Shown here in pieces: positions 6,319 to 7,203 of a stretch of 64,000 bases of DNA. Every line of letters begins with the position of its first letter. Within the stretch, counting starts at the first letter, position 1. The DNA comes from Dehalococcoidia bacterium (GTDB lineage Bacteria; Chloroflexota; Dehalococcoidia; Lucifugimonadales; JAGWBF01). The DNA lies in the NCBI GenBank assembly GCA_021295955.1, contig JAGWBJ010000005.1, positions 230,597 through 294,596 on the forward strand. The letters run 5' to 3'. The notes below the pieces were generated by a model that saw only the letters and a list, made by a program, of their open reading frames with translations, searched no databases and was not told the DNA's origin. A program made the position numbers and the translations under genes.

Positions 6319-7203
6319 ATGGACGTCGCTGATCTACTGGCTGAAACGAGGGGCAGATACTACGAAGCGTTGGCCCTGGGTCAGCCCGGCATGGCGCAAT
6401 CGGTGATCGACCGCGCGCTCAGTCGGGGAGCCAGTCGCGCGGAGATATACTTGCATGTGCTCGCGCCCTGCCAGGCCAGGATCGGCGAATGCTGGCACAG
6501 GGGCGCCATAGGCATCGCCGAAGAGCACTTGGCGACCACGATAACGATGGGGGTAATGGACTTCTTGAAGCGAGGCATGGAGCAAGGCCCGGATAACGGT
6601 TTCAGGGCTTTGGTCACACCCGTGGAGGGAGACAGGCACACCATCGGCGCGAGATTCGTGGCCGATTTCCTGGAGATGGACGGCTGGGAGGTCGACTGTT
6701 TTGGCAACGACACCCCGGCGGGGGACCTTGGAGAGTTTGTTCGGCAGCGTGGCTACGACCTCGTGGCGCTCTCGTCAACCCTGCCCGAGTGCCTCCCGAA
6801 CGTCGCGGCGACGACCAGGGCGATCCGATCCCAGGATGAGCCAACTCCGAAGATACTCCTGGGCGGAAGGGCCCTTGAGGGACAGAGACTGGACCCGGCT
6901 GTCCTGGGGTGCGACGCCACTGCTGGAAACCCCCTGGAGGCCGTGAAGGAGGCGCGCCGCCTCGTTGGCGTGACCGACGGAAGGCTGACACTTCAGGAAT
7001 ACCTCGCCTTGCTCGGCGGGCGGGTCAGGGCGATTCGGAAGCGCCACAGGATGACCCAGCAGGAATTGGGCGACGTTTCAGGTTTGGACCGGACCTACAT
7101 CAGCGCAGTTGAGCAGGGGAAGCAGAACCTCACCGTCGGCGCGCTGCGAAAGATCGCCCACGCCCTGGATATGCCCATGGGCGAGCTGCTGGCATCCCGT
7201 TAA
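6319..7203 (+). CDS. Cobalamin-binding (CarH-type photosensor-like) domain fused to C-terminal XRE/Cro-C1 HTH
   Basis: W-HRGAIGIAE-EH (Wx9EH), DRHTIG (DxHxxG), SSTL and LGG motifs; C-terminal RVRAIRKRHRMTQQELGDVSGLDRTYISAVEQGKQNLTVGALRKIAHALDM. Confidence 0.88.
   Translation: MDVADLLAETRGRYYEALALGQPGMAQSVIDRALSRGASRAEIYLHVLAPCQARIGECWHRGAIGIAEEHLATTITMGVMDFLKRGMEQGPDNGFRALVTPVEGDRHTIGARFVADFLEMDGWEVDCFGNDTPAGDLGEFVRQRGYDLVALSSTLPECLPNVAATTRAIRSQDEPTPKILLGGRALEGQRLDPAVLGCDATAGNPLEAVKEARRLVGVTDGRLTLQEYLALLGGRVRAIRKRHRMTQQELGDVSGLDRTYISAVEQGKQNLTVGALRKIAHALDMPMGELLASR

What the first reader, a model, noticed from the sequence alone, without database searches (positions are those of the whole stretch)
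6319..7203. CarH-type B12 light-sensor domain fused to an XRE-type (not MerR) DNA-binding domain, in reversed order
The N-terminal half has the exact Wx9EH motif (W codon at 6493, EH at 6523-6528) that caps adenosylcobalamin in CarH photoreceptors, plus DRHTIG (DxHxxG, lower axial His), SxL and GG motifs. The C-terminal half is a clean Cro/C1 HTH. Known CarH/LitR proteins place a MerR-type HTH at the N-terminus. This architecture (B12 sensor then XRE HTH) would be a distinct, possibly undescribed class of B12/light-responsive regulator. It sits directly upstream of an MMPL exporter that could be its target.
Basis: partly seen in the sequence, partly recalled or inferred. Interest (0 to 1): 0.87.

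Follow-up and report, generated by a model that had tools for sequence, protein, structure and literature searches.

The report
B12 light sensor with swapped DNA-binding end
This gene encodes a probable light-sensing gene switch that uses vitamin B12 like the known photoreceptor CarH but carries a different DNA-binding part at its other end; hundreds of relatives exist, many of them beside UV-repair genes, and a conserved pair of DNA sites in front of them suggests what it binds.

Summary
Window 6319-7203 (+) is one intact 294-aa ORF: B12-binding_2 + B12-binding + C-terminal Cro/C1 (XRE) HTH. It has every CarH photosensor motif (Wx9EH, DxHxxG-x41-SxT-x27-GG, GxxW/EH/GxxH/GxxxP), and also the His after Trp that is the light-state ligand in T. 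thermophilus CarH. It is not a sequencing artefact: over 300 homologues were found, and those examined keep the same order of domains.

Homologues in several phyla lie beside photolyase, SDR, amine-oxidase, CMAS and SRPBCC genes, close to the gene set light-induced through class II LitR in Pseudomonas. In 250 genomes of the window's order the fusion is common (64) and MerR-type CarH is nearly absent (one candidate).

New here: an 18-bp dyad (TGTnnnnTATAnnnnACA), often in tandem copies 31-33 bp apart, precedes the fusion gene and some light-cluster operons. The window's copies (6238-6255, 6271-6288) contain its TATAAT boxes and are by far the best pair in 64 kb.

Best reading: a CarH-logic repressor, AdoCbl-bound in the dark and released by light, with a swapped DNA-binding domain; here autoregulated and perhaps controlling the co-directional MMPL exporter. 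Light response and DNA binding are inferred. CBD-HTH fusions were already listed in silico (PMC11796333), so: new variant of a known kind.

The parts
6319..7203 (+). XRE-CarH fusion: cobalamin-binding photosensor domain + C-terminal Cro/C1 HTH, 294 aa
6355..6570 (+). B12-binding_2, helical bundle that caps the adenosyl group (residues 13-84)
   Evidence: model helices H3-20, H23-35, H40-60, H66-85
6493..6528 (+). W59-H60-x8-E69-H70: Wx9EH motif, with the His corresponding to TtCarH H132 after the Trp
   Evidence: H60 is His in 55 of 64 non-identical fusion proteins
6604..6882 (+). B12-binding Rossmann domain (residues 96-188) with the lower axial His107
   Evidence: His107 invariant in 64/64
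6628..6717 (+). GxxH (G104-H107) and GxxxP (G129-P133) of the light-responsive CBD signature
7024..7188 (+). HTH_3 Cro/C1 DNA-binding domain (residues 236-290), closest in PDB to R-M controller proteins C.BclI and C.AhdI
6238..6255 (+). distal operator dyad TGTTGTATAATACTATCA, contains TATAAT 6243-6248
6271..6288 (+). proximal operator dyad TGTGTATAATGGTCTATA, contains TATAAT 6275-6280; starts 33 bp after the distal dyad
   Evidence: best pair in the whole window (24.5 against 4.3 for the next locus; 0 of 4000 shuffles)
7359..9545 (+). MMPL (RND superfamily) exporter, co-directional, possibly co-transcribed with the fusion gene
   Evidence: PF03176; no terminator-like site found between 7204 and 7358; no operator there

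Best explanation
The protein is a one-component, AdoCbl-dependent, light-inactivated repressor that uses CarH's sensor with another DNA reader. Proposed steps: (1) in the dark AdoCbl binds between the helical bundle and the Rossmann domain, His107 as lower ligand, Trp59/Glu69/His70 capping the adenosyl group; (2) the sensor domains oligomerise; (3) the C-terminal XRE domains pair on 18-bp dyads, and two dyads 31-33 bp apart (about three helical turns, so one DNA face) are held together, covering the TATAAT boxes and repressing; (4) green/blue light cleaves Co-C, His60 becomes the new ligand, the oligomer falls apart and the promoter opens. In relatives the regulon is photo-damage repair (photolyase, lipid-modifying enzymes, SDR). 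In this genome the only recognisable operator is the gene's own, so autoregulation plus read-through into MMPL is the likeliest output. Shown here: architecture, motifs, fold, operator pattern, neighbourhoods. Inferred: cofactor binding, light response, oligomer, repression, MMPL control.
For: Motifs; conservation in 64 non-identical fusions: G56 64, W59 62, H60 55, E69 63, H107 64, P133 62. Other CBD proteins found by the same search mostly have E or Q after the Trp. Signature definition from experiment: PMC11796333. Structure: AF2 pLDDT 87.7; best PDB matches are proven B12 photoreceptors (photocobilins, CtMerR, TtCarH), not MetH or methyltransferase proteins. Neighbourhood: photolyase, 2-thiouracil desulfurase-DUF1722, SDR, NmrA-DUF2867, amine oxidase, CMAS, DUF1295, SRPBCC, and in L046 a MerR-type CarH; compare the Pseudomonas LitR light set. 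Photolyase-positive genomes of the order: 31 of 42 carry the fusion against 33 of 208 without photolyase. Operators: EM log-likelihood 199.6 against 55-62 in shuffled sequences; spacing 31/32 counted 20 times against 0.85 +/- 0.94; tandem pairs also upstream of photolyase-containing gene runs in L017 and L021 and of NmrA in L020; in the proteobacterial/myxococcotal clade the self-similarity lag also peaks at 31. In the order, CarH-model hits mostly coincide with fusion genes; one MerR-type candidate. An adenosyltransferase is present in this genome.
Against: No binding, spectroscopic or expression data. The window's genome lacks photolyase and DUF378 and shows no other consensus operator, so a light regulon is not visible here. 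The window's proximal dyad is degenerate and its spacing is 33, not 31-32. Neighbour and spacing counts are partly shared by descent. Repression rather than activation is inferred only from overlap with the TATAAT boxes.
Confidence: 0.7

Rival explanations
1. It is an AdoCbl-level (B12 status) sensor: AdoCbl binding controls DNA binding, and light sensitivity is incidental or physiologically irrelevant, especially in this genome.
For: The window genome has no photolyase or DUF378; the downstream gene is an exporter, and AcrB-type RND or MMPL genes neighbour several close relatives.
Against: The full light signature is kept, including the His that forms the bis-His light state in TtCarH, which is not needed for AdoCbl binding as such; in relatives the neighbours are photo-repair genes, not B12 synthesis or uptake genes.
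Confidence: 0.17
2. The operators are bound by another regulator and the fusion protein merely sits in its regulon.
For: No binding data. Each half-site (TGTnnA / TnnACA) also fits the TnnACA element read by MerR-type CarH.
Against: MerR-type CarH is nearly absent from the order: one candidate in 250 genomes. The sites recur just upstream of the fusion gene in several phyla, as expected of an autoregulated XRE protein, and are dyads rather than 11-bp direct repeats.
Confidence: 0.1
3. The B12 domain is only a structural or partner-binding domain and light is read by a separate photoreceptor, as for class II LitR with short LOV.
For: Class II LitR precedent; DICT-domain neighbours in L021, L033, L034 and L107.
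Against: Cofactor-contacting residues are almost invariant in this family, whereas B12-independent CarA has lost the Trp of Wx9EH.
Confidence: 0.07
4. The two domains are separate genes joined by a sequencing or assembly error.
For: None found.
Against: Over 300 full-length homologues were found in independent assemblies.
Confidence: 0.01

Closest known systems
CarH/LitR (MerR-type AdoCbl photoreceptor-repressor; T. thermophilus CarH 5C8D/5C8E)
   Same: Sensor domain with Wx9EH, DxHxxG-x41-SxT-GG, GxxxP and the His132 equivalent; about 30% identity over the sensor fold; similar type of target genes (photolyase, SDR, FAD oxidoreductase, CMAS-like).
   Different: Cro/C1 HTH at the C-terminus instead of MerR winged helix at the N-terminus; putative operator of 18-bp dyads 31-33 bp apart instead of tandem 11-bp direct repeats.
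Chloracidobacterium CtMerR (8JBS/8JBT)
   Same: Light-responsive CBD, best single-sequence PDB match.
   Different: MerR HTH at the N-terminus; Arg in place of the His132 equivalent, where P0001 has His.
Photocobilins SasPcob / AbDPcob (8J2W-8J2Y)
   Same: CBD with another domain after it (SasPcob); best profile and Foldseek matches.
   Different: Bilin-binding (and, in AbDPcob, DGC) domains rather than a DNA-binding domain; Gln or Tyr at the His132 position.
CBD-HTH proteins in the SignatureFinder similarity network (PMC11796333 Fig. 9)
   Same: Light-signature CBDs fused to HTH at the N- or C-terminus, found in silico; probably includes this architecture.
   Different: No XRE subtype, context, operator or experiment is given in the text; the supplement (Fig. 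S9) could not be read.
Spirochaetaceae XRE-CBD protein (L070)
   Same: HTH_3 fused to a CBD with GxxW-x9-EH.
   Different: HTH at the N-terminus; its CBD groups with photocobilin-like CBDs in the tree.

Membership tests
CarH/LitR family | Cobalamin-binding domain with helical bundle + Rossmann fold | tested here: met
CarH/LitR family | Wx9EH together with the D/ExHx2G...SxT...GG motif | tested here: met
   definition
CarH/LitR family | N-terminal MerR-type DNA-binding domain | tested here: not met
   C-terminal HTH_3; NCBIfam CarH matches only profile 94-254, 74.9 bits against cut-off 400
CarH/LitR family | Operator of tandem 11-bp nnnnTnnACAn direct repeats | tested here: not met
   18-bp dyads 31-33 bp apart by sequence analysis
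CarH/LitR family | AdoCbl-dependent oligomerisation and light-triggered release from DNA | not testable with these tools
   needs purified protein
Light-responsive CBD (SignatureFinder signature) | GxxW, EH, GxxH, GxxxP | tested here: met
   G56-W59, E69-H70, G104-H107, G129-P133
Light-responsive CBD (SignatureFinder signature) | AdoCbl binding and green-light photolysis | not testable with these tools
   none
XRE (Cro/C1) regulators | HTH_3 domain over Pfam cut-off | tested here: met
   47.5 bits against cut-off 23
XRE (Cro/C1) regulators | Dyad-symmetric operator near the own promoter | tested here: met
   by sequence only
Corrinoid methyltransferase proteins (MtaC/MtbC/MetH) | Best match to these families and no adenosyl-capping motif | tested here: not met
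   Wx9EH present; far below the NCBIfam cut-offs

The most novel reading that the evidence does not exclude
A widespread second class of B12 photoreceptor-repressors ('XRE-CarH') in which CarH's sensor was fused to a Cro/C1 domain, probably once, and largely takes the place of MerR-type CarH in this Dehalococcoidia order (with further members in Myxococcota, Acidobacteriota, Planctomycetota and others). It reads tandem 18-bp dyads held three helical turns apart by a light-breakable oligomer, and in some lineages without photolyase, including this one, has been rewired to transporters.
Probability: 0.55. Interest if true: 0.78.

Novelty: new variant of a known kind. Interest (0 to 1): 0.66.

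Why it matters
If true, it shows that the B12 photosensor is a portable module that drives an unrelated DNA-binding fold placed at the opposite end, with an operator logic of tandem dyads on one DNA face instead of 11-bp direct repeats. It would extend B12-based green-light sensing to abundant uncultured Chloroflexota, including marine SAR202, where no paper in the library searched mentions a cobalamin photoreceptor. It predicts regulons (photolyase, DUF378, DICT, NmrA-DUF2867, SRPBCC), gives unknown families a testable light-response context, and offers a compact new type of light switch.

Tried and rejected
Single-protein scan of genome contigs found nothing; repeated with an alignment it gave 67 loci. 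An operator upstream of MMPL (7204-7358): none; the only strong pair in the window lies upstream of the fusion gene. Other operators in the window's genome: consensus patterns gave one hit with 3 mismatches, not above its reversed control, or none; the window's own distal site is unique at up to 3 mismatches. DUF378 as a partner, divergent in many close relatives: absent from this genome. The palindromic PWM alone scores the window's sites low; clade PWMs built without the window recover them. The whole genome was not available as a file and was not pieced together from stretches. A frame error or a separate HTH ORF was rejected. A protein-mode plasmid search gave only CBD-level matches in Azospirillum. 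A Pfam check of the IS-like remnant upstream failed because of in-frame stops. The 2017 Annual Review on B12 photoreceptors is not in the library, and supplementary files could not be read, so prior description of exactly this architecture cannot be excluded.

Full report
What is there. Window 6319-7203 (+) is one uninterrupted ORF of 294 aa with B12-binding_2 (13-84), B12-binding (96-188) and HTH_3 (236-290), all above the Pfam cut-offs. The sequence contains W59-x9-E69-H70, D105xH107xxG110, exactly 41 residues to S152-x-T154, then 27 to G182-G183. This is the full D/ExHx2G-x41-SxT-x22-27-GG plus Wx9EH combination that is said to define CarH homologues (PMC9304148 and PMC8156234). The four motifs of the SignatureFinder light signature (GxxW, EH, GxxH, GxxxP; PMC11796333) are all present.

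It is real and it is a family. A database search gave 309 proteins at E <= 1e-3; the 120 listed have nearly full coverage and the same Pfam set. Aligned members share the motifs. A scan of GTDB genomes gave about 50 fusion loci, mostly Dehalococcoidia and SAR202, but also Myxococcota, other proteobacterial bins, Acidobacteriota, Planctomycetota, Caldilineaceae and Fraserbacteria. In the window's own order 64 of 250 genomes carry it. On a tree of the sensor domains the C-terminal-XRE group lies on one side of a branch (support 72/99), so a single origin is compatible with the data but not proven; a Spirochaetaceae protein with XRE at the N-terminus is a separate fusion.

Is the sensor competent? 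In 64 non-identical fusion proteins: G56 64, W59 62, E69 63, H107 64, G110 62, P133 62. The residue after the Trp, which in light-exposed T. thermophilus CarH becomes the second His ligand of cobalt, is His in 55. In the other CBD proteins returned by the same scan that residue is mostly Glu or Gln, and in CtMerR, SasPcob and AbDPcob it is Arg, Gln and Tyr. His70 was required by the pattern used to collect the sequences, so its invariance should be discounted. A clade beside photolyase (L048/L052/L150/L151) appears to have changed EH to EN (L151). The AlphaFold2 monomer (pLDDT 87.7, pTM 0.72) matches photocobilins, CtMerR and CarH before any other PDB entry.

Neighbourhood. Gene calls were mechanical, but Pfam and NCBIfam confirm the key neighbours: photolyase/cryptochrome (L021, L048, L052; class II photolyase by NCBIfam superfamily match, below its cut-off, in L017), 2-thiouracil desulfurase-DUF1722 (L017, L020, L046), SDR, NmrA-DUF2867, amine oxidase, CMAS, DUF1295, SRPBCC, DICT. 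In L046 a MerR-type CarH lies four genes away. The set resembles the light-induced set of Pseudomonas class II LitR: phrB, SDR, FAD oxidoreductase, furan-fatty-acid synthase, cryB (PMC9758184). In the order, photolyase lies within about 7 kb of the fusion gene in at least eight genomes. 31 of 42 photolyase-positive genomes have the fusion against 33 of 208 others (odds ratio 15, Fisher 3e-13, not corrected for descent). Searching the same 250 genomes with the CarH model returned mostly the sensor part of the fusion genes, and one MerR-type candidate (G027), which sits beside amine oxidase, DUF1365 and CMAS, a set that overlaps the neighbours of other fusion genes. So in this lineage the XRE version seems to take CarH's place.

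Operators. Upstream regions of fusion genes, otherwise diverged, share an 18-bp dyad TGTnnnnTATAnnnnACA (EM log-likelihood 199.6 against 55-62 for shuffled sequences). 29 of 53 non-redundant upstreams hold a perfect TGT-N12-ACA against 3.6 expected. Pairs spaced 31 or 32 bp occur 20 times against 0.85 +/- 0.94 in dinucleotide shuffles, maximum 6 in 200. In the proteobacterial/myxococcotal clade, where the half-sites differ, the self-similarity lag still peaks at 31. Outside the fusion promoter, 31/32-bp pairs occur in L017 (before the desulfurase-photolyase genes and between amine oxidase and SDR), L021 (before the run DUF378-DICT-photolyase-NmrA-SDR-SRPBCC-amine oxidase) and L020 (before NmrA-DUF2867). 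In many close relatives the sites lie between the fusion gene and a divergent DUF378 gene.

In the window. With distal and proximal PWMs built from 15 relatives and not from the window, the best pair in the whole 64 kb on both strands is 6238-6255 / 6271-6288, score 24.5; the next independent pair scores 4.3; 0 of 4000 shuffles reach it. The palindromic PWM that guided the choice of training sites had seen the window among 41 sequences, so the test is nearly but not wholly independent. Both dyads contain a TATAAT (6243-6248, 6275-6280). The proximal site is weak and the spacing is 33. No operator and no terminator-like site lies between the fusion gene and the MMPL gene at 7359-9545, so MMPL could be co-transcribed. 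MMPL adjacency recurs in G004, in one genus (G109, G114, G119, G123) and in G143 (list truncated, hence a lower bound), and AcrB-type RND genes neighbour five other close relatives. The genome has no photolyase, DUF1722 or DUF378 and no other consensus operator, but does have an adenosyltransferase. The genome is 88% complete, so absences are provisional.

Mechanism. The simplest account is CarH logic with another DNA reader: dark, AdoCbl-bound oligomer; XRE domains paired on each dyad; two dyads about three helical turns apart occupied on one face; repression by covering the -10 boxes; light cleaves Co-C, His60 ligates cobalt, the oligomer breaks and the promoter opens. Architecture, motifs, fold, operator pattern and neighbourhoods are computed; ligand binding, oligomerisation, light response, sign of regulation and MMPL control are inferred.

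Novelty. Light-responsive CBDs fused to HTH domains at either end have been listed in silico (PMC11796333), and NCBI calls members 'cobalamin-dependent protein' or 'helix-turn-helix domain-containing protein'. No paper found describes an XRE-type member, its operator or its regulon. It works like CarH, but fails CarH's defining MerR domain and operator type, so it is filed as a new variant of the B12 photoreceptor-repressors and not as a CarH.

Noticed in passing
window 9411-9602 and 12901-13091: The 3' end of the MMPL gene plus its downstream flank (about 190 bp) is repeated at 98-99% identity about 3.5 kb further on, shortly before a tRNA-Gly on the other strand (13151-13225); looks like a recent partial duplication or insertion.
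   Followed up: partly
window 5865-6175: Non-coding stretch whose frames read like fragments of an IS21-type transposase (FERLRDEYGFGGQYTLVQ, AHYFVLDLPHSNGCFVKAYPAETTEAW); a likely decayed insertion just upstream of the operator. Family recalled, not tested.
   Followed up: no
L004-L016, L050, L127 upstream of the fusion gene: A divergent DUF378 small membrane protein shares the operator region with the fusion gene in many relatives, and DUF378 heads a photolyase-containing run of genes in L021; a light-response context for DUF378.
   Followed up: partly
L048, L052, L150, L151: A photolyase-adjacent subclade whose CBD appears to have EN instead of EH in the capping motif (WHNGEISISHEN in L151), a natural variant of a residue thought essential.
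   Followed up: partly
L070 9689-10669: Spirochaetaceae protein with the reverse arrangement (XRE at the N-terminus, CBD at the C-terminus), apparently an independent fusion.
   Followed up: partly
L021 8065-9249, L033 10980-12215, L034, L107 9496-10695: DICT-domain proteins next to the fusion gene and photolyase in several lineages, possibly a further sensor in the same light cluster.
   Followed up: no
window 8-4195 and about 4235-5786: Genes resembling a 2-hydroxyacyl-CoA dehydratase activase-type pair (BcrAD_BadFG, DUF2229) upstream on the same strand; unrelated to the finding (for the first).
   Followed up: no
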